A DNA stretch of 64,000 nucleotides from a bacterium (GTDB lineage Bacteria; Cyanobacteriota; Vampirovibrionia; Gastranaerophilales; Gastranaerophilaceae). A program made the translations under genes and the position numbers. The notes under the pieces were generated by a model. It made no database searches. It was not told the DNA's origin and saw only the letters and a list, made by a program, of their open reading frames with translations. The stretch is from positions 1-64,000 of the forward strand of contig JAFYQF010000002.1 in assembly GCA_017559905.1 (NCBI GenBank), in the 5' to 3' direction. Positions 7,607 to 53,316 of the stretch are shown here, one piece after another (the stretch's first letter is position 1; the number at the start of each line of letters is the position of its first letter).

Positions 7607-8329
7607 TTATTTTAATTTTCTATACAAAAATGGAATATCAGTAAGCTTGAATCCTCTTTCTTCAAGCATTCTATCCATACCACAAGCTCTGTCAAATGAA
7701 CCAATCGCTAACAAACAAGTCTTGTCTAATAATTTCGCCAATTTATCTGCTAGCATAACTTGTTCTTGCCCTGACAAATATCCCCAAAAATTACGACACA
7801 AAAGCACGGTATTTTTAGTTGGAATAGTGTCGATATCTTGACAAATATCTGCTTTAGAAAAATTTATATCCCTTTTCAAGAAGTCTTTCACAAATGCATA
7901 CTTTTCCAACCCATCATCAACAATATCAATATATCTATATAAATTCTTACCCCCCAAAGAATCTAGTCGAAGAGCTTCTTGATTTGAAATCTTATACCTT
8001 CCTCGTTTTGCCTTTAATACACAATTAGAATCTATATCTTTTGCAATTATAGGCAACAATTTATTTGAGTTTTCTCTCATCTGTGTTTTGAACGCTAATG
8101 CTAAAGAATAAGTTTCTTTCCCAGTAGAACATGCATAAGAAACAACATTAACCTTTGCTTCATCCTTATAGATATTATTTATTTTATTAACAAAACCCAT
8201 CCAATCAAAATCCTCACGCAAAAATTCTGTAGTATCTAAATACGCAACTTTCGCAGATGTAAATTGCGGTTGAGAACATCTTTTTGCCAATTGATTATGT
8301 GAATATACGTAAGAAGGATAAACTTTCAT
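7607..8329 (-). CDS. CheR-like SAM-dependent methyltransferase with FxS leader
   Basis: Protein of 240 aa resembling the catalytic domain of chemotaxis receptor methyltransferase CheR: TEFLRE (CheR TxFFR), SYACSTGKETYSLA (SAM-binding CASGEEPYSLA), AKDIDSNCVLKAKRGRY and LLCRNFWGYLS (CheR CRNVLIY). The all-alpha N-terminal CheR domain is missing. In its place is a short leader ending PQFTSAK (F at about 23), very like PTFKA in the 10559 gene, and both share KRC before it. The glycine of CASGEE is replaced (CSTGKE), so activity is uncertain. No chemotaxis gene is nearby; it is probably co-transcribed with the upstream gene (6 nt apart). Confidence 0.65.
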   Translation of the reverse strand: MKVYPSYVYSHNQLAKRCSQPQFTSAKVAYLDTTEFLREDFDWMGFVNKINNIYKDEAKVNVVSYACSTGKETYSLALAFKTQMRENSNKLLPIIAKDIDSNCVLKAKRGRYKISNQEALRLDSLGGKNLYRYIDIVDDGLEKYAFVKDFLKRDINFSKADICQDIDTIPTKNTVLLCRNFWGYLSGQEQVMLADKLAKLLDKTCLLAIGSFDRACGMDRMLEERGFKLTDIPFLYRKLK

Positions 8330-8335
8330 CTATAT

Positions 8336-8866
8336 CTATTGTTCAGCTTTTTTAAAGATTTCTTTGTAAATCATTTCAAGAGCTTTTTTCAAGTCTTTAT
8401 CTTGAGTTTCAGATAACTCACTTGATTTTAAAACTTCTACTGGTGGCATAGCTTCAAGTTCACCAGAAGCTTTAGTGTTAAATAAAATTTCAAACTTTTT
8501 GATTACTGTATCAATACTATTTTGGCATTCATCAGCTAGATTTTTATTGTTTAATTCTTGCAACTTAAACATCGCCTGAAGTCTTATTTGAGGCTTTTTA
8601 TTGTCGATTTTCACAGTTGGCTCGTATCTAACACCTTTACCAGAAGATTTCAACGCACCGTCAAATTCATACGATCTTTCAGTACCATCATTCAAAATCG
8701 CAAGCAAATTGTTAAACAATTTTTTTATTTTTATATGGTCATTAGTCTTAATTGTATATTCAATGCAGTTTTCAAGATACTTGTTCGGCACAATTTGTCC
8801 TGAAAAAGCTTGTTTATTATTTTTATTATAATTACTATTTCTATAATAAACTGGGGTTATGTTCAT
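8336..8866 (-). CDS. hypothetical protein with FSG leader
   Basis: Unrecognised 176-aa soluble protein. The first 23 residues are Asn/Tyr-rich and end QAFSG, the N-terminal signature shared with several other proteins here. The remainder is predicted mostly helical with no known motif. GAGGT lies 7 nt before the ATG. It is the first gene of a two-gene operon with the CheR-like methyltransferase, so a functional link, such as substrate and modifier, is possible but unproven. Its promoter motif is divergent from that of the YkgJ-family gene. Confidence 0.55.
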   Translation of the reverse strand: MNITPVYYRNSNYNKNNKQAFSGQIVPNKYLENCIEYTIKTNDHIKIKKLFNNLLAILNDGTERSYEFDGALKSSGKGVRYEPTVKIDNKKPQIRLQAMFKLQELNNKNLADECQNSIDTVIKKFEILFNTKASGELEAMPPVEVLKSSELSETQDKDLKKALEMIYKEIFKKAEQ

Positions 8867-19550: not shown

Positions 19551-21587
19551 TTATTTTGCAAAACCTGCCATTGATGGTTTACTTCCTACGGTTTGAGACA
19601 ACTTAATAGCCTGAATTTGTTCTTGAGCCTTTTGTTGAGCTTCTTTAGTTTGGGTTAATTGAACAGTATCTTGTGCCATCATTGCACGTTCTTTAGCTTT
19701 ATTTTCTTTTGTCATTCTTTCGCAATATCTAGCCAACCAAATCATAAATGCTGGTACTAACAAGATAATTGATGCGAATGAGAATGCACTATTCATTGTT
19801 TTTGCCTGTCTTACAAATTTGTTATTTGTATCTGCAAATACTTTATATATTTTCTTCAAAGGTTCAGCTTCTTGTTCTCTTGCAACTTTAAATGCTTTTT
19901 CAATTTCTTCTAAAGTTGAATCTTTCAATGTTTTACCAAGAATTTTTTCTGCTTCTTCTTTAACAGTTTTATCCATTCCAAGAACTTTCTTTGGATCTCC
20001 ACCGTTAGCTTTCAAGAATTCAAAGAATCCATTGATACCATCTTTGTAACCATCAATATTACTATATTTAGTAACGATTTCTGCACTACTTAAAACATTT
20101 ACACCGCTACCAGCAGTAACATAGTTTTTAACCTTGTACAAGAATCCTTTGCTATGGTCATCAGGTTTTGTATTCAAAGCCAAGCCTGACATTCTTGCAA
20201 ATCCATCAGAGAAACCTCTTGAAAGAGCTTTTGCACCAAACAAAATAGCAGTGAATGAAGACATATCTCTTACAACGATTTCACGTCTATCGTGATGGTC
20301 TTTTGCATCTCTATAACGTGGAGGCAAACAGAAGCCAAACAACAATGTTAACATTGCAGGTACTGACATTGACGCTCCGTTAAATTCGAATGTATCTGAC
20401 AATTTTTTGAACATTCCGCCTTTTAACACTTTTTTACCAACAGCCTCGTTTACAGAAGCCATGCCACCTTTAAACGCAACATCTTTTGCTTTTTTATCAT
20501 CATCTTTTTTAGCAGCTGAGTTTTCATCAGAAACGGATGGCATTTCATCTACGTTAGCTTTGATACCAATGTTATAAAGCTTTGGAATAATATCATAGAA
20601 TCCAACAACTGCAAAGAACATACCGAAGTTAGACAACAATCTTGAACCTGAACGACGAAGATTAAATGATTTTAAGAAACCAGTAAAGTCTTCACCATTA
20701 TTTTTCAAATATATATTAGCAGATTTAATAACGTCATCCGTATAATTTGTCATATTATCTAGCAATTTACTAAATGAAGTTACAACATCTTTATCACGCC
20801 ATTTTACATTGAAAGTAGCTTCAATTTCATTAGATGTTGGCGCACCATGTTTTTTGCGTAAATCCATGAATTCTTGAATCAATTCACCTGTCAAATCTTC
20901 TTTTTTACCAGGGGTAGCTTTACCAATAAAATGTTTAAAGAAGCCTTTAGATTCAGCTTGTTCAATGTTGATAAGTTTATTTGCCATATCAGCAGAAACA
21001 GTTTCTAACTCTTCGCCTTTTAGTGCATTTTTTAAAGAAGCAGATAAAGTCTCTCCAAACATTTGTTTGTAGAACGCAAATTTTACATTTTTTACTTGTG
21101 CTGGATCTTTAACATCAGTTATAACCTTGATTGCTTCTTTGTTATTGTCAGCAATCTTAACGAAATTTTCACTCAAAGTGTTAATCATGTTAATAGAAAC
21201 ATCATTAGCTTTGCCTGAATATTTTTTAATCACAGCAAGAATACCCGCTGGAATTAAGAAAGCACTAGGACCTGAAAGTATTTCACGAATACCTTCACGT
21301 CTAGCAAAAGCCCAGTTGTAAGGTCCTGTTTTTTTGCCAGTTTCTTCATCACGAGGTCTACCACGGTTCAAACCTTCCCAAATACGAGGAGCAACCATGC
21401 CAATACCATCTTGCGCAATAAATTCAGCCGCAAAACCACCACGTGCAATTGCATCAGTGACTGTGACGACAGGGTTAAATGAACCTGTAAATTGTGGATT
21501 TACACTAGTATAAGGCTTATTTTGTTGATTTACCCCTAATCGTTTTTGACGATTATTTTCTACTGAATTGATTGATTTTACTGCCAT
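19551..21587 (-). CDS. large multi-pass membrane protein with FTG leader
   Basis: Unrecognised 678-aa protein. The first 35 residues form an Asn/Gln-rich leader ending VNPQFTGSF (F at 33). Hydrophobic segments follow at about 112-126 (FLIPAGILAVI), 322-340 (FGMFFAVVGFYDII), 405-420 and 618-635 (SFASIILLVPAFMIWLA). Long charged, helical stretches separate them. The segment ARREGIREILSGPSAFLIPAGI resembles AIREGLTEVIAIPVYWGL in the 26283 gene, suggesting a shared domain. The C-terminus is Gln-rich and helical. It is transcribed alone from the TAGCAAA-class motif (spacer 15). Confidence 0.6.
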   Translation of the reverse strand: MAVKSINSVENNRQKRLGVNQQNKPYTSVNPQFTGSFNPVVTVTDAIARGGFAAEFIAQDGIGMVAPRIWEGLNRGRPRDEETGKKTGPYNWAFARREGIREILSGPSAFLIPAGILAVIKKYSGKANDVSINMINTLSENFVKIADNNKEAIKVITDVKDPAQVKNVKFAFYKQMFGETLSASLKNALKGEELETVSADMANKLINIEQAESKGFFKHFIGKATPGKKEDLTGELIQEFMDLRKKHGAPTSNEIEATFNVKWRDKDVVTSFSKLLDNMTNYTDDVIKSANIYLKNNGEDFTGFLKSFNLRRSGSRLLSNFGMFFAVVGFYDIIPKLYNIGIKANVDEMPSVSDENSAAKKDDDKKAKDVAFKGGMASVNEAVGKKVLKGGMFKKLSDTFEFNGASMSVPAMLTLLFGFCLPPRYRDAKDHHDRREIVVRDMSSFTAILFGAKALSRGFSDGFARMSGLALNTKPDDHSKGFLYKVKNYVTAGSGVNVLSSAEIVTKYSNIDGYKDGINGFFEFLKANGGDPKKVLGMDKTVKEEAEKILGKTLKDSTLEEIEKAFKVAREQEAEPLKKIYKVFADTNNKFVRQAKTMNSAFSFASIILLVPAFMIWLARYCERMTKENKAKERAMMAQDTVQLTQTKEAQQKAQEQIQAIKLSQTVGSKPSMAGFAK

Positions 21588-47823: not shown

Positions 47824-48972
47824 TTATTTATTAAATCTTTCATCCTGCCCTTCTCTTGGACCAAAGAATCTATTAAACACATAACTAACAGCACTCAAGC
47901 CAGCCACTGCGCCTACTGCTATCAATGCAATTCTAGAAATTGATGGAGCATGTGGCAACTCCTCTGTAACATTCAACCATTCTTTTTTGAAAAATAAATC
48001 ATCTGCGTTCTTATAAAATATTTTTTCAATCAAATCATCAGCATCTTTGCTAAAGTTTTCTTTGATAACTGTTTTTAAAGTCCCTACAGTTCTTTCGTAA
48101 GCTTGTTTTGGAGATAATCCTCCGGCAAGCTTTTCACCATAACAACCTAACGGAGCATCTGTACCAAACAAAACTCTGTCAGTCGCATCATTTTCTTGAA
48201 GCATTTTTATTAACTTAACAACACTTGGCTGTTCCGCTTTAGCTAAACCATCGTCGCCCCAATCAACCCAAGACAAATCCACATACAACTTCGCATCTTT
48301 ATTTTTCAAAGAAGTTTCTAATACCTCTATAGCCTCATCATGTGAAATAGGCGCTTTACCAGCTCCCATATGAGCCATAACTACTGGAACATCAGGGAAT
48401 TCTTTTGCCGCATTATATATAGACTTTGGTGAAGATATCACATCTTTTACAGAACCATCATCGTTTAAATTTACATCAGAATGAAACACACAAGGTAGTT
48501 TGTACCTTTCTGCAAGCCTTAAATATGTTCTATAAGCCTTGTTATCAGCTTGAAGATTAAAATCTCTAGGATGGAACTTCAAACCAACAAACTTGTCCGG
48601 ATTCTCTTTTAGTAATTTATTAATATTGGCAGAATTTCCACCTGTTTTGGAAGGCTGACAAACGGCTAAGGGATGGTACTTCGGATTTTGAGCACAGAAA
48701 TCAAGCATTTCCTTATTCCCATCAATTTCGTTCTTCATTCCATCCCTGATTAAACAATCCAAATTTGAAACAATTACTTTTTCAACATTATCTTGTTGTT
48801 GAACACCGCTAACAGACACATTCAATGGAGCTTTAACAAAAGAATCTAAATGATTTCCATCATACATAGCAAGCTCATTTGGATTATCTACTCTCTTAAA
48901 ATGACCATAATGAATGTGTGAATCAATTATCACTCCCTTAAAAGAAACCCCGTTCACTGCACCAATTATCAT
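47824..48972 (-). CDS. amidohydrolase-2-like protein with FKG leader and C-terminal membrane tail
   Basis: Protein of 382 aa. After the short leader MIIGAVNGVSFKG, the metal-dependent hydrolase core starts with IIDSHIHYG (HxH); LKFHPRD, CVFHSDV, VVMAHMG and FGTDAP complete an amidohydrolase_2 barrel. The last 45 residues contain a hydrophobic helix (RIALIAVGAVAGLSAVSYVF) and a short basic end, a possible tail anchor. That combination is unusual for this enzyme class. It overlaps the upstream gene by 4 nt. Confidence 0.7.
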   Translation of the reverse strand: MIIGAVNGVSFKGVIIDSHIHYGHFKRVDNPNELAMYDGNHLDSFVKAPLNVSVSGVQQQDNVEKVIVSNLDCLIRDGMKNEIDGNKEMLDFCAQNPKYHPLAVCQPSKTGGNSANINKLLKENPDKFVGLKFHPRDFNLQADNKAYRTYLRLAERYKLPCVFHSDVNLNDDGSVKDVISSPKSIYNAAKEFPDVPVVMAHMGAGKAPISHDEAIEVLETSLKNKDAKLYVDLSWVDWGDDGLAKAEQPSVVKLIKMLQENDATDRVLFGTDAPLGCYGEKLAGGLSPKQAYERTVGTLKTVIKENFSKDADDLIEKIFYKNADDLFFKKEWLNVTEELPHAPSISRIALIAVGAVAGLSAVSYVFNRFFGPREGQDERFNK

Positions 48973-50849
48973 CCAAATATATCTCCTATATTAACGTCAT
49001 TATCAGCACGACGTTCTAAAATTTTTAACCCTTTTGCAGAAAGATGTCTTACTTCTCCTGAAGCGTGCATACATTCAATTTCAGGATACATTTCACCTCG
49101 ACGTTTTGCTATTTCAGCCAACTGCACAAAACAGTCAGCGATTTTACCCCTAATTTCCTCAGTAGCTATGCGTCTGTCATCTTTGGCATAATCTTCTAGG
49201 AAATTTTTACTTAACGTATTAATGTATTTATTATAACACCAATTAGCTCCACCATAATCGCCTAAACCGAATTTCACATCACCCAAATGTTTGTATGTTA
49301 GTGTATGAATTTCTTTACGTCTATTAAAACCTTCCATCTCATTATATTCAATAGCCTCTTGGAACAAAGATTCAGCTTCTTTTAAATTATTATGAGATTT
49401 TTCCTTTAAAGCACTTTGGAACGTATTGAACGCTGCAGTACTGAAATTAACATTGATTTTTGCACTCAAATCATCTGCAAAACGTTGTCTTTCAACGTCA
49501 CGTTTGATTGCATTAAGCATTGAATATGAACTACCCCACATTCCTCTAACGCTAGGTTTTCCGTTGCTTTCACAATCAGCCTCTGGGTAAATTATTTCAT
49601 AATGAGAATTTCTTCTATAATAATTTTTCAAATTTGAATCTACAAAATCACCTTTATCGTAAATTTTGCCTTCAAACAAAGTACCTTCATCAAACAATTT
49701 CCATACAGGATATAATTTGTCAGAGAAAGCTGAAGTATCATCGCCATTTTCTAAAGCTGATTTGAAAGCATAAGTTTTATCGTCATCCGCCACAACTTCA
49801 TCAACATGTTTACCAACAAATCTAGCAACTTCACTCACTTCATCGTTGTAAGGGAAATCTTCAACAGGGATTTGATTTGTAACTGTGTCTTTGTAACTAT
49901 AACCTACAAGTCTACCGTTTTCTCTAACAGGAGATAAGTTATAAACACCTCTAGCGCCATCATTTACGGTTGTATCATACGCTGAATAAATATGGTCAGA
50001 ATATCCATCTCTCTTTTTCAAGTTCACAACTTCCGCTTTCGACAACGCTAACAAGTTAAAATCATACCAACCCTCATTTTGAATATAATCCAACATGTTA
50101 TGAACTCTACCTTCTTTGTCATATCCAGTAGCTAAATAATTTGTTAATTCAGGTTTTTCACCTCTTACATCCGCCATCCAAATTAAAGAGTTGTATTGTG
50201 GATGTTCTGCCGGTACATAAACCTTTTTACAATTCAATTTGTTTATCTCTTGAATAATACCATAGGCATACTCAATACCTTGATTATTTGGATCCATATA
50301 ACGAATATATTTTTTATACTTTTCAGGTTCTTCATAAAGAACTTTCAAGAAATCCATTATTTTCTTTTTGCAAGTTTGAGTTGTATGTGGACGCAAATGT
50401 AAATAGTAACCCATTACTTGCTTATATTGTTCCGCTAAATTTTGCAACGGAACACTAATTTTAACAGGAATTGCAACATAAGAGTTTTCATCAGTCAAAC
50501 CAAATTTATTAATTTCTTTTAATTGTTCCTCAATATTCTTCAGCGGTTTATTGAGACTCCAATCTTCAGTATCCTCCGCTCTGTGTAGTTTTACGTCAAT
50601 TCGTGGAGAATCTGCTTTTGTAAATTGCGCCATTTCAATAGCATGTTTTCCGCCATCAACAATATGTACGTCATATCCCATAAAAGAAATAGTTTTTGGT
50701 GGATTCAAAGGTTTTTCAACTGATTGTGAAACAGATTTCACAAAAGAATCACTGGTAACATTCAAATTATAAGCAGAAGTCTGCGCATAATTTTTTGAAT
50801 TATTAACCTTTTGATTTGACCAAAACATAGATATAGGCGCAATTTTCAT
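48969..50849 (-). CDS. large soluble hypothetical protein with FMG leader and C-terminal TPR-like repeats
   Basis: Protein of 626 aa. The N-terminal 55 residues are polar and Asn/Ser-rich, ending KTISFMGYDVHIVDGG (F at 56), a longer version of the shared F-x-G leader. The central 350 residues are unrecognised. The C-terminal part (about 490-610) has TPR-like repeats (AESLFQEAIEYNEMEGFNRRKE, LGDVKFGLGDYGGANWCYNKY). Co-transcribed and translationally coupled with the amidohydrolase, which may act on or with it. Promoter motif at 50891-50919. Confidence 0.6.
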   Translation of the reverse strand: MKIAPISMFWSNQKVNNSKNYAQTSAYNLNVTSDSFVKSVSQSVEKPLNPPKTISFMGYDVHIVDGGKHAIEMAQFTKADSPRIDVKLHRAEDTEDWSLNKPLKNIEEQLKEINKFGLTDENSYVAIPVKISVPLQNLAEQYKQVMGYYLHLRPHTTQTCKKKIMDFLKVLYEEPEKYKKYIRYMDPNNQGIEYAYGIIQEINKLNCKKVYVPAEHPQYNSLIWMADVRGEKPELTNYLATGYDKEGRVHNMLDYIQNEGWYDFNLLALSKAEVVNLKKRDGYSDHIYSAYDTTVNDGARGVYNLSPVRENGRLVGYSYKDTVTNQIPVEDFPYNDEVSEVARFVGKHVDEVVADDDKTYAFKSALENGDDTSAFSDKLYPVWKLFDEGTLFEGKIYDKGDFVDSNLKNYYRRNSHYEIIYPEADCESNGKPSVRGMWGSSYSMLNAIKRDVERQRFADDLSAKINVNFSTAAFNTFQSALKEKSHNNLKEAESLFQEAIEYNEMEGFNRRKEIHTLTYKHLGDVKFGLGDYGGANWCYNKYINTLSKNFLEDYAKDDRRIATEEIRGKIADCFVQLAEIAKRRGEMYPEIECMHASGEVRHLSAKGLKILERRADNDVNIGDIFG

Positions 50850-51020: not shown

Positions 51021-51314
51021 TTAACCAATTCCTATTGTACGCCCAGTAAGAATTGTACCATCGTCACGATATGCCAATATTTGCTCCGTAAAATTATTTT
51101 GAAACGGATTCAAACCAGTAGCGAAAGGACTCGTTTTACTTAAAAAACTCATACTTGTCGGATCCATATTTTGTTGATATCGCATAGTATTGCTCACATC
51201 AGCTATTCTTGACGTGTCATAATAATTGGTTGGACTCAACCCAACTTGAGCATCATCACCAAGATTTACCCGATTTATAGGGGCAATACCGCCGTTGTTG
51301 TAACCGCTTGACAT
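51021..51314 (-). CDS. 97-aa hypothetical protein with APINRV motif
   Basis: Polar, Gly/Asn/Thr-rich protein without signal peptide or helix. GGIAPINRVNLGDDA near the N-terminus resembles LAPIGRVDAYNGNN of the 18733 product, and the tail TILTGRTIGIG is glycine-rich. Likely a member of the same small lineage-specific family. A GGAAAAGG-like ribosome-binding site lies before the ATG, and a weak TAGCAAA-like motif (51445-51439, reverse) lies about 125 nt upstream. Confidence 0.5.
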   Translation of the reverse strand: MSSGYNNGGIAPINRVNLGDDAQVGLSPTNYYDTSRIADVSNTMRYQQNMDPTSMSFLSKTSPFATGLNPFQNNFTEQILAYRDDGTILTGRTIGIG

Positions 51315-51802: not shown

Positions 51803-52525
51803 TTAGATTTTATAATCAATCTCGTGTTTCTTAAATAACTTATTATAATAATCAGCATTAGCTTTAAGCATATTTTTATCCAACATTAATGGCACATTAT
51901 AAACAAAATTTTGATCATCCCAACGGTTACGATTTTGCACGACATAACGTGTCACCAAACCAGATAGAGAGGCTTGATACTGACTTTCATCTTTAGATGA
52001 ATAAAAATCAGCAAGCAGCTTTTTAGCCAACTTATTCAAATCTCCAGCTTCGTTTGTTCGAAGAATTATATTTTGCAAAAGATTCGACATAGTTTCTTGT
52101 TTATAATCTGGGAAATAGGGTTTAAATCTATATTTTATATGAAATGGGAGAGCTGTTGATAAGGACTCTAATTTAATACCATCAAGATTATTTTCTTTAC
52201 ACATCATAAGACTAGCAAGGCGGAGAAGTTCACCTAGTCCATTTCCTTGGTGTTTATAATCAACTTCCATATAATCACCATCTAAAACATTCTCACTAAT
52301 GTAGTATTCATGATGCCCTAATATATTGAAACTTTTATCAGTAACAAATGTACGCACACACTCTGAACTTTCATCATTTATAGAATTCAAATAAACAATA
52401 CCGTTATTAGCCCTAACTGGCATTCGATTAAGGTACTTAATTCCATCCTCTTCATAAAATCTAACTTTTGTAGGTAGTTGAATTGGCTTAGTTTTCGGTT
52501 TTATAAAATTAAAAACTTTAATCAC
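51803..52525 (-). CDS. GNAT-like hypothetical protein A
   Basis: Protein of 240 aa with an acetyl-CoA-binding-like motif YKHQGNGLGELLRLASLMM (Q-x-x-G-x-G pattern) and a following LPFHIKYRFKPYFPDY, common in GNAT folds where a phenylalanine/tyrosine block closes the domain. The 70-residue C-terminal helical extension ends YNKLFKKHEIDYKI. It is paralogous to the upstream gene (5 nt apart) over its whole length. The substrate is unknown; the GNAT call rests on one motif. Confidence 0.55.
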   Translation of the reverse strand: MIKVFNFIKPKTKPIQLPTKVRFYEEDGIKYLNRMPVRANNGIVYLNSINDESSECVRTFVTDKSFNILGHHEYYISENVLDGDYMEVDYKHQGNGLGELLRLASLMMCKENNLDGIKLESLSTALPFHIKYRFKPYFPDYKQETMSNLLQNIILRTNEAGDLNKLAKKLLADFYSSKDESQYQASLSGLVTRYVVQNRNRWDDQNFVYNVPLMLDKNMLKANADYYNKLFKKHEIDYKI

Positions 52526-52530
52526 TACAC

Positions 52531-53316
52531 CTAAACTCCATAATCAATAGAATGCTTTTCAAAAAGCTTGTTATAGAATGGTGCATTTTCTTGAACTTTG
52601 CTTATAGAAAGGCTCATTGGAATATCATCAATCATCAAGTCTTTATCCCAGTTATCAAGATGTTTTTCAATATATTCAATCATTAAAGAATCTAGCCTTG
52701 CCAAATCCTCTTTTGGCAAAGATTTATTCACAAACAACTTATCCAAAAGCAAATAAGCTTGTTCTACAGAATTTCTAGACAATCCTTTATTTTGCGTTAA
52801 ATACAACAAAGTTCCTCTAATAAAATTAAAAGGAGAATCCGCCCCTGAAGTATCTGCAAAACTTGTATTTTTAATAGCCTCAATATTAGCAAAATCTGGT
52901 CTAAATCCATATTTATAATGAAATGGTATTGCTTTTGATAGGGCTTCAATATTATTTTTAACAACGCCATTTTCTTTCATGTGAATAATACTCGCTAATC
53001 GCATTAATTCACCATATCCACGTGACTTGTAAAAATTATAAACATTCATAGATATTCCATCGAAGAATTTCTTCTGTTTATTAATAGTAAAAGAATGCGA
53101 CGCAAAGGGATATGAATTCCCAACTCCAGAAACAAAAGTTATACAAGGTGCAAACGCTGCATCCGGATTAAATGTTGATATTTCAACCAAATCACCTCGC
53201 AAACTGTCTTTTGCCAGCAATGAATGTATCAATTTAACCCCATTTTTTATATCAAAATCGGGAACGCTTAATTTATTGCAAGTTTGTATCTTGTTGAATA
53301 ATTCAATCTTCATCAC
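52531..53316 (-). CDS. GNAT-like hypothetical protein B
   Basis: Protein of 261 aa paralogous to its downstream neighbour: FYKSRGYGELMRLASIIHMKEN, IPFHYKYGFRPDF and the C-terminal YNKLFEKHSIDYGV match. The RGYGEL motif again suggests acetyl-CoA binding. It probably shares an operon with it. Tandem duplication with divergence is evident; partner or substrate unknown. Confidence 0.55.
   Translation of the reverse strand: MMKIELFNKIQTCNKLSVPDFDIKNGVKLIHSLLAKDSLRGDLVEISTFNPDAAFAPCITFVSGVGNSYPFASHSFTINKQKKFFDGISMNVYNFYKSRGYGELMRLASIIHMKENGVVKNNIEALSKAIPFHYKYGFRPDFANIEAIKNTSFADTSGADSPFNFIRGTLLYLTQNKGLSRNSVEQAYLLLDKLFVNKSLPKEDLARLDSLMIEYIEKHLDNWDKDLMIDDIPMSLSISKVQENAPFYNKLFEKHSIDYGV

What the first reader, a model, noticed from the sequence alone, without database searches (positions are those of the whole stretch)
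47824..50849. Amidohydrolase with leader and possible tail anchor coupled to a leader-bearing partner
An ordinary metal-dependent hydrolase core has gained both the F-x-G leader and a C-terminal hydrophobic helix. It is translationally coupled (4-nt overlap) to a 626-aa protein with a similar leader and TPR-like repeats. Re-purposing of an enzyme for a membrane-bound assembly is a reasonable inference.
Basis: partly seen in the sequence, partly recalled or inferred. Interest (0 to 1): 0.5.

Follow-up and report, generated by a model that had tools for sequence, protein, structure and literature searches.

The report
Tagged, membrane-tethered enzyme with operon partner
In an uncultured group of gut bacteria related to cyanobacteria, an ordinary metal-dependent enzyme carries a short N-terminal tag and a C-terminal membrane-type helix and is made together with a previously unclassified partner protein bearing a similar tag, a tag seen on roughly one in twenty of the genes sampled from this bacterium and possibly a targeting or export signal.

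Summary
The window belongs to the Gastranaerophilales. The 382-aa protein is an intact PF04909 TIM-barrel amidohydrolase; a 13-residue leader ending S-F-K-G precedes the fold and a hydrophobic C-terminal helix (345-370) follows it. Its start overlaps by 4 nt the stop of a 626-aa protein with a 58-residue disordered leader ending F-M-G, an alpha/beta domain without a detected relative, and TPR repeats. The pair is kept in 13 of 14 genus genomes and recurs in distant branches.

Among 76 relatives the F-x-G/A leader is nearly universal, with or without helix or partner. The partner lies directly upstream of 26 of 45 helix-bearing forms and of none of 31 short forms. So helix and partner go together, while the leader is a separate tag, found on 38 of 674 sampled genes, about four-fold over controls.

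Most likely: a membrane-tethered enzyme-adaptor complex carrying a lineage-specific targeting tag. Interaction and location are untested. A bolder option is export by a second type III system that nearly all these genomes carry, also those without flagellin; leader genes are not enriched beside it.

The parts
47824..48972 (-). 382-aa metal-dependent amidohydrolase (PF04909) with leader and C-terminal helix
48934..48972 (-). F-x-G leader of the amidohydrolase (residues 1-13, ends S-F-K-G)
   Evidence: residues 1-9 disordered; F at this place in 74 of 76 relatives
47971..48933 (-). TIM-barrel core (residues 14-334); H19, H21, K132, H164, H201, D272 invariant in 51 of 51
47863..47940 (-). C-terminal hydrophobic helix (residues 345-370)
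   Evidence: AlphaFold2 helix; hydropathy 2.18 at 348-366; a hydrophobic C-terminal stretch is seen in the 14 genus rows of the alignment
48969..48972 (-). 4-nt overlap (ATGA) of partner stop and enzyme start; AGGAG at 48983-48987
   Evidence: 23 of 26 related pairs overlap
48969..50849 (-). 626-aa partner protein; no Pfam or NCBIfam match at E up to 0.01
50676..50849 (-). leader of the partner (residues 1-58: M-K-I-x-P-I-S..., ends F-M-G)
   Evidence: pLDDT under 50 for residues 1-57; F56 invariant, G58 nearly so in 25 rows
49485..50675 (-). alpha/beta domain (residues 59-455) without a detected relative by sequence
49035..49454 (-). TPR-type helical repeats (residues 466-605)

Best explanation
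A conserved two-gene operon of Gastranaerophilales makes a catalytically intact amidohydrolase that is tethered to a membrane by its C-terminal helix, and a TPR-bearing partner that docks on it and organises or regulates it. Shown: the operon, the added leader, the added helix, the conserved metal-site residues, the TPR repeats and the co-distribution of helix and partner. Inferred: that the helix sits in a membrane, that the two proteins bind each other, and that the F-x-G leader on both is a shared targeting tag (not part of either fold) used by about one in twenty sampled genes of this bacterium. Which membrane, which side and which substrate are open.
For: Pair in 13 of 14 genus genomes, with conserved flanks in the genus stretches examined, and again in distant branches of the family. 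23 of 26 pairs overlap, one has a 3-nt gap, two have 220-239 nt. Partner directly upstream of 26 of 45 helix-bearing forms and of 0 of 31 short ones. Metal-site residues invariant in 51 of 51; fold matches 3cjp at Z 23.2, 2.6 A over 231 residues. Leaders disordered in both models, ending at or next to the F-x-G. Leader found genome-wide: 23 of 448 proteins of 200 aa or more, against 6 of 448 internal stretches, 5 of 448 C-terminal stretches and a mean of 5.6 in shuffled N-termini.
Against: No interaction or location was measured. Helix/partner co-occurrence is not significant once descent is allowed for (4 independent pairs). 19 of 45 helix-bearing forms lack an adjacent partner, the genus member G011 among them. 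The helix cut-off was lowered from hydropathy 1.6 to 1.5 with a length above 335 aa; at 1.6 one partner-bearing form (L151, 1.56) counts as helix-less. Topology is undecided: of 45, 22 have more K+R before the helix and 12 more after it. Two partners (L143, L151; 450 and 462 aa) end before the TPR region. The leader filter was set by hand after seeing examples, contains false hits and misses the window's own enzyme.
Confidence: 0.45

Rival explanations
1. Both proteins are exported. The F-x-G leader is the N-terminal export signal of a second, flagellum-like type III system, and the enzyme's helix inserts into a target membrane outside the cell.
For: Leaders are disordered, without a hydrophobic stretch and rich in N, Q, S, T (the composition is partly built into the filter). 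The genome has no flagellin match yet holds FlhA, FliP, FlhB and the export ATPase plus genes that I named FliF- and FliE-like and others from their sequence. 17 of 20 leader or leader-like proteins scanned have no Pfam match above the curated cut-off; one of the other three is a 5'-nucleotidase.
Against: Leader genes are not enriched near this system: 12 of 223 and 6 of 158 against 39 of 700. The samples of one f7 and one f3 genome, which have the system, hold hardly any leader. The leader-like 5'-nucleotidase beside FlhB passes the filter in only one of five other genomes shown with it. A leader-like GH77 amylomaltase would be expected in the cytosol (expectation recalled). No chaperone or secretion evidence.
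Confidence: 0.17
2. The enzyme is soluble and ordinary; leader and C-terminal helix are drifting extensions, and the operon only reflects co-regulation.
For: Short forms without the helix are common (31 of 76); the leader is variable apart from F-x-G; amidohydrolases of this fold are usually soluble (recalled).
Against: F in 74 of 76 and Gly with all four codons; a hydrophobic C-terminal stretch in all 14 genus rows and in 45 of 76 relatives.
Confidence: 0.22
3. The leader is an artefact: the F-x-G is part of barrel strand 1 or lies upstream of the true start.
For: The motif directly precedes K-I-I-D-x-H-x-H, and two f7 relatives start just before it with no leader. Dihydropyrimidinase-type chains align from model residue 1.
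Against: The closest family-2 chains begin at about model residue 10-14; the start overlaps the partner's stop with an AGGAG ahead; the same ending occurs in unrelated proteins.
Confidence: 0.06
4. A two-gene defence or toxin unit.
For: Enzyme plus repeat protein in one operon.
Against: No PADLOC match for six genes of the region at E up to 0.01; the pair keeps its place between conserved flanks in the genus stretches examined.
Confidence: 0.03

Closest known systems
Amidohydrolase family 2 (PF04909); closest fold matches 3cjp, 4do7, 3irs
   Same: TIM barrel with HxH, Lys, two His and Asp; Z 22.4-23.2, rmsd 2.6-3.2 over 231-257 residues; residues invariant in 51 of 51
   Different: Adds an F-x-G leader and a C-terminal hydrophobic helix; 12-22% identical to these three chains
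C-tail-anchored membrane proteins (general class, recalled)
   Same: No hydrophobic N-terminus, one hydrophobic stretch near the C-terminus with 16 residues after it
   Different: No clear charge asymmetry across the family; insertion untested
TPR proteins of the kinesin-light-chain / LGN type
   Same: Partner residues about 466-605: LGN 5a7d Z 16.4, 2.1 A over 121 residues; KLC1 by sequence profile, E 2e-6
   Different: Joined to an alpha/beta domain with no detected relative and to a disordered leader; Z of this size is only a little above what helical repeats give in general (note)
N-terminal signals of type III secretion (general class, recalled)
   Same: Short, disordered, non-hydrophobic, polar N-terminus; type III genes are present in the genome
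   Different: A fixed F-x-G at the border of the fold; no enrichment beside the apparatus genes; no secretion data

Membership tests
Amidohydrolase family 2 (PF04909) | Profile match above the curated cut-off | tested here: met
   57.1 bits against 26.4
Amidohydrolase family 2 (PF04909) | TIM barrel with conserved metal-site residues | tested here: met
   (Z 23.2); residues 19, 21, 132, 164, 201, 272 invariant in 51 of 51; their role as ligands is recalled
Amidohydrolase family 2 (PF04909) | Metal-dependent hydrolase, hydratase or decarboxylase activity | not testable with these tools
   needs an assay
C-tail-anchored membrane protein | Single hydrophobic helix within about 50 residues of the C-terminus and no N-terminal signal peptide | tested here: met
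   helix 345-370, hydropathy 2.18 at 348-366; leader without a hydrophobic stretch
C-tail-anchored membrane protein | Insertion into a membrane with the N-terminal domain in the cytosol | not testable with these tools
   K+R: more before the helix in 22 of 45, more after in 12
TPR protein (partner) | Tandem helix pairs with TPR profile or fold match | tested here: met
   TPR_2 matches 8 of 25 members at E up to 0.1; PDB TPR matches. The window's own member has no Pfam TPR match
Type III secretion substrate | Type III export genes in the same genome | tested here: met
Type III secretion substrate | Gene clustered with the apparatus (frequent, not obligatory) | tested here: not met
   the pair lies on contig C21, the apparatus genes found on C6, C7 and C24; no enrichment of leader genes beside them
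Type III secretion substrate | Secretion that depends on the N-terminal signal | not testable with these tools
   needs a reporter assay
Known anti-phage defence system | Match to a PADLOC model | tested here: not met
   0 of 6 proteins at E up to 0.01

The most novel reading that the evidence does not exclude
The F-x-G leader is a lineage-specific export signal read by a second, filament-less type III system that nearly all Gastranaerophilales examined keep even without flagellin, so that these common gut bacteria release a large set of proteins, among them this membrane-inserting amidohydrolase and its TPR partner.
Probability: 0.14. Interest if true: 0.85.

Novelty: new variant of a known kind. 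Interest (0 to 1): 0.45.

Why it matters
The pair gives a concrete handle on a tag that marks about one in twenty sampled genes of an uncultured gut lineage, 17 of 20 checked without a confident Pfam family. If the tag is a targeting or export signal, many orphan proteins of the Gastranaerophilales get a location at once. The helix-partner rule is a simple, testable claim about how an everyday enzyme fold becomes part of a membrane assembly.

Tried and rejected
Defence system: no PADLOC match. Relative of the partner's alpha/beta domain: Pfam on the whole partner gave, besides TPR, only weak matches in one or two members; NCBIfam on the domain gave four families in one member each; the PDB profile search gave two designed helical proteins (E 0.007-0.009) and one match at E 0.19. 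Positive-inside rule for the helix: undecided. The Fisher test of helix against partner (p 7e-8) was set aside because of shared descent. Clustering of leader genes with type III genes: none. Literature: the rows listed (top rows only; searches matched 18,293 and 576 papers) showed no title on this leader, this pair or a second type III system in this order; of PMC4451040 and PMC5877343 I saw passages, which speak of flagella in some and partial flagellar gene sets or loss in other Melainabacteria; PMC3459982 held none of four terms.

Rows dropped: two identical copies, one 24-bit hit (L116_4, TatD-like by eye), one ORF with a cut start; locus L114 gave no complete ORF. The helix cut-off was 1.6 and 1.5 with length above 335 aa, which moved L151 into the helix group.

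The leader filter was tuned by hand after reading examples and after a first filter (27 of 448 N-termini, 8 internal, 2 C-terminal); it includes evident false hits and misses the window's own enzyme. Widening the last letter to G/A/S gave 34 of 448 against 21, 17 and 17.6, i.e. less contrast. Of its 38 hits I sent 17 to Pfam, plus 3 leader-like proteins picked by eye.

Full report
What is there. On the minus strand the window holds a 626-aa gene (48969-50849) followed by a 382-aa gene (47824-48972) whose ATG overlaps the TGA before it by 4 nt, with an AGGAG 11-15 nt upstream of the ATG. The second is a PF04909 amidohydrolase. Most records that carry relatives are titled Candidatus Gastranaerophilales, Melainabacteria or Scatousia, or unnamed bacteria; one is labelled Brachyspira, probably a mislabelled assembly since it groups with the Scatousia record L130 on the tree.

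The enzyme. An AlphaFold2 model (mean pLDDT 90.7, 51 aligned sequences) shows a barrel, residues 1-9 disordered, and a 26-residue helix at 345-370. VIA-align puts 3cjp at Z 23.2, rmsd 2.6 over 231 residues, 4do7 at Z 23.2, 3.0 over 257, and 3irs at Z 22.4, 3.2 over 255. The family-2 chains of that list align from model residue 10-14 on and end at about 329-333; larger dihydropyrimidinase-type chains align from residue 1. So leader and C-terminal part are additions to the family-2 core. H19, H21, K132, H164, H201 and D272 are invariant in 51 of 51, so activity is expected. The substrate is unknown.

The partner. Its model (mean pLDDT 84.7, 25 sequences) has residues 1-57 below pLDDT 50, an alpha/beta region 59-455 and helices from about 440 on. 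Residues 466-605 match TPR proteins (LGN 5a7d Z 16.4, rmsd 2.1 over 121; kinesin light chain by sequence profile, E 2e-6). TPR_2 matches 8 of 25 members but not the window's own. The alpha/beta part found no convincing relative. Columns of the partner leader are less conserved (0.43) than the F-x-G (0.80) and the alpha/beta domain (0.61).

Distribution. Of 59 genomes searched, 25 have the enzyme (all 14 of the genus, own included) and 18 the partner (13 of 14). Gene order around the pair is conserved in the genus stretches examined. G011 has kept the flanks, the small 97-aa gene and the enzyme and lacks the partner. In G019 a 347-aa open frame begins like the partner (about residues 1-219) and ends like the enzyme (from about 245 on), an in-frame chimera that keeps a leader and a hydrophobic C-terminal stretch; it may be a deletion remnant.

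Leader, helix and partner taken apart. In 79 loci I counted 76 distinct enzyme ORFs. Six residues before the D of DxHxH, F is present in 74; the residue two further on is Gly in 63 and Ala in 9. One of the two exceptions (L109) has the motif shifted by one residue, seen by eye; L163 lacks it. The Gly is encoded by GGT 30, GGA 14, GGC 13, GGG 6. A C-terminal hydrophobic stretch (hydropathy above 1.5, protein above 335 aa) is present in 45 of 76. The partner lies directly upstream in 26, all of them in this group (L151 only at 1.56); none of 31 others has it, 26 of these having at least 2.5 kb of upstream sequence. A tree of the core needs 4 changes for the helix and 10 for the partner; four independent pairs are too few for significance. 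Twenty-three of 26 pairs overlap, one has a 3-nt gap and two have 220-239 nt.

The leader as a genome-wide tag. In 745 kb of the own genome (window plus 40 stretches), a hand-set filter found the F-x-G leader in 38 of 674 ORFs of 90 aa or more; among 448 proteins of at least 200 aa it hit 23 N-termini, 6 internal stretches, 5 C-terminal stretches, and 5.6 on average in shuffled N-termini (Fisher p 0.002 against internal and 0.0008 against C-terminal). An earlier filter gave 27, 8 and 2. In 64-80 kb samples of one genome each of other families it hit 1 of 52 (f7), 0 of 57 (f3), 1 of 72 (f6), 4 of 59 (f4) and 3 of 68 (f8, same class only), most of them not leader-like by eye except in f4. Of 20 leader or leader-like proteins, five had a Pfam match at E up to 0.001, three of them above the cut-off: 5'-nucleotidase, helix-turn-helix, GH77. 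Leader proteins have a single C-terminal hydrophobic stretch in 4 of 35, others in 20 of 615 (p 0.035).

A possible route. The own genome has no flagellin match (29 of 59 genomes do) but has one FliP, one FlhB, one export ATPase match and a full-length FlhA. Genomes with flagellin mostly hold two FliP and two full FlhA. FliP and FlhA of the second set are 69-87% (four genomes) and 76-78% (three genomes) identical across genera and only 39-46% and 35-38% identical to the flagellar set of G041 and G045. By score band and hand count, 56 of 59 genomes hold the second-type FliP. In the own genome the second set includes FliF-, FliE-, FliJ- and rod-like genes named by me from sequence. Published passages read such gene sets as partial flagella (PMC5877343) or infer loss of flagella (PMC4451040). 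That the leader is the export signal of this set is an idea only: leader genes are not enriched in 20 stretches around FliP or FlhA (12 of 223 other ORFs) or in nine stretches around FlhB (6 of 158 ORFs) compared with 39 of 700 in the own sample. Two leader-like genes do lie between FlhB and the FliJ-like gene in the own genome, but the filter flags the 5'-nucleotidase-like one in only one of five other genomes that show it.

Verdict. Observation confirmed; interpretation partly supported. The best-supported account is a helix-tethered enzyme with a co-translated TPR adaptor, both carrying a lineage-specific tag that belongs to a far larger set of proteins.

Noticed in passing
G000 contigs C6:39912-46009, C24:90875-94610, C7:10799-19026 (L204, L197, L211, L076): A second, flagellum-like type III export gene set in a genome without a flagellin match; by score band a second-type FliP is in 56 of 59 genomes, mostly beside a true flagellar set where flagellin is present.
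   Followed up: partly
   Followed up: no
window 7607-8329, 8336-8866, 19551-21587: Further window genes with leader-like N-termini (Q-F-T-S, A-F-S-G, Q-F-T-G); the latter two have no Pfam match at E up to 0.001.
   Followed up: partly
window 51021-51314: A 97-aa gene upstream of the pair, found in the genus stretches except the short contig L096, and kept in G011, which lacks the partner.
   Followed up: no
L046 / L051 6144-7187 (G019:C11): In-frame chimera: N-terminal third of the partner joined to the C-terminal part of the enzyme, keeping leader and hydrophobic C-terminus.
   Followed up: partly
window 51803-52525 and 52531-53316: Two neighbouring genes without a confident family whose relatives hit the same places in other genomes; such genes are present in some genus stretches and absent from others.
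   Followed up: no
L206 5904-7922: A GH77 amylomaltase (PF02446) that starts with a leader-like N-terminus (M-R-I-T-N-I...L-S-F-Q-R), unexpected for an enzyme usually held to be cytosolic (expectation recalled).
   Followed up: no
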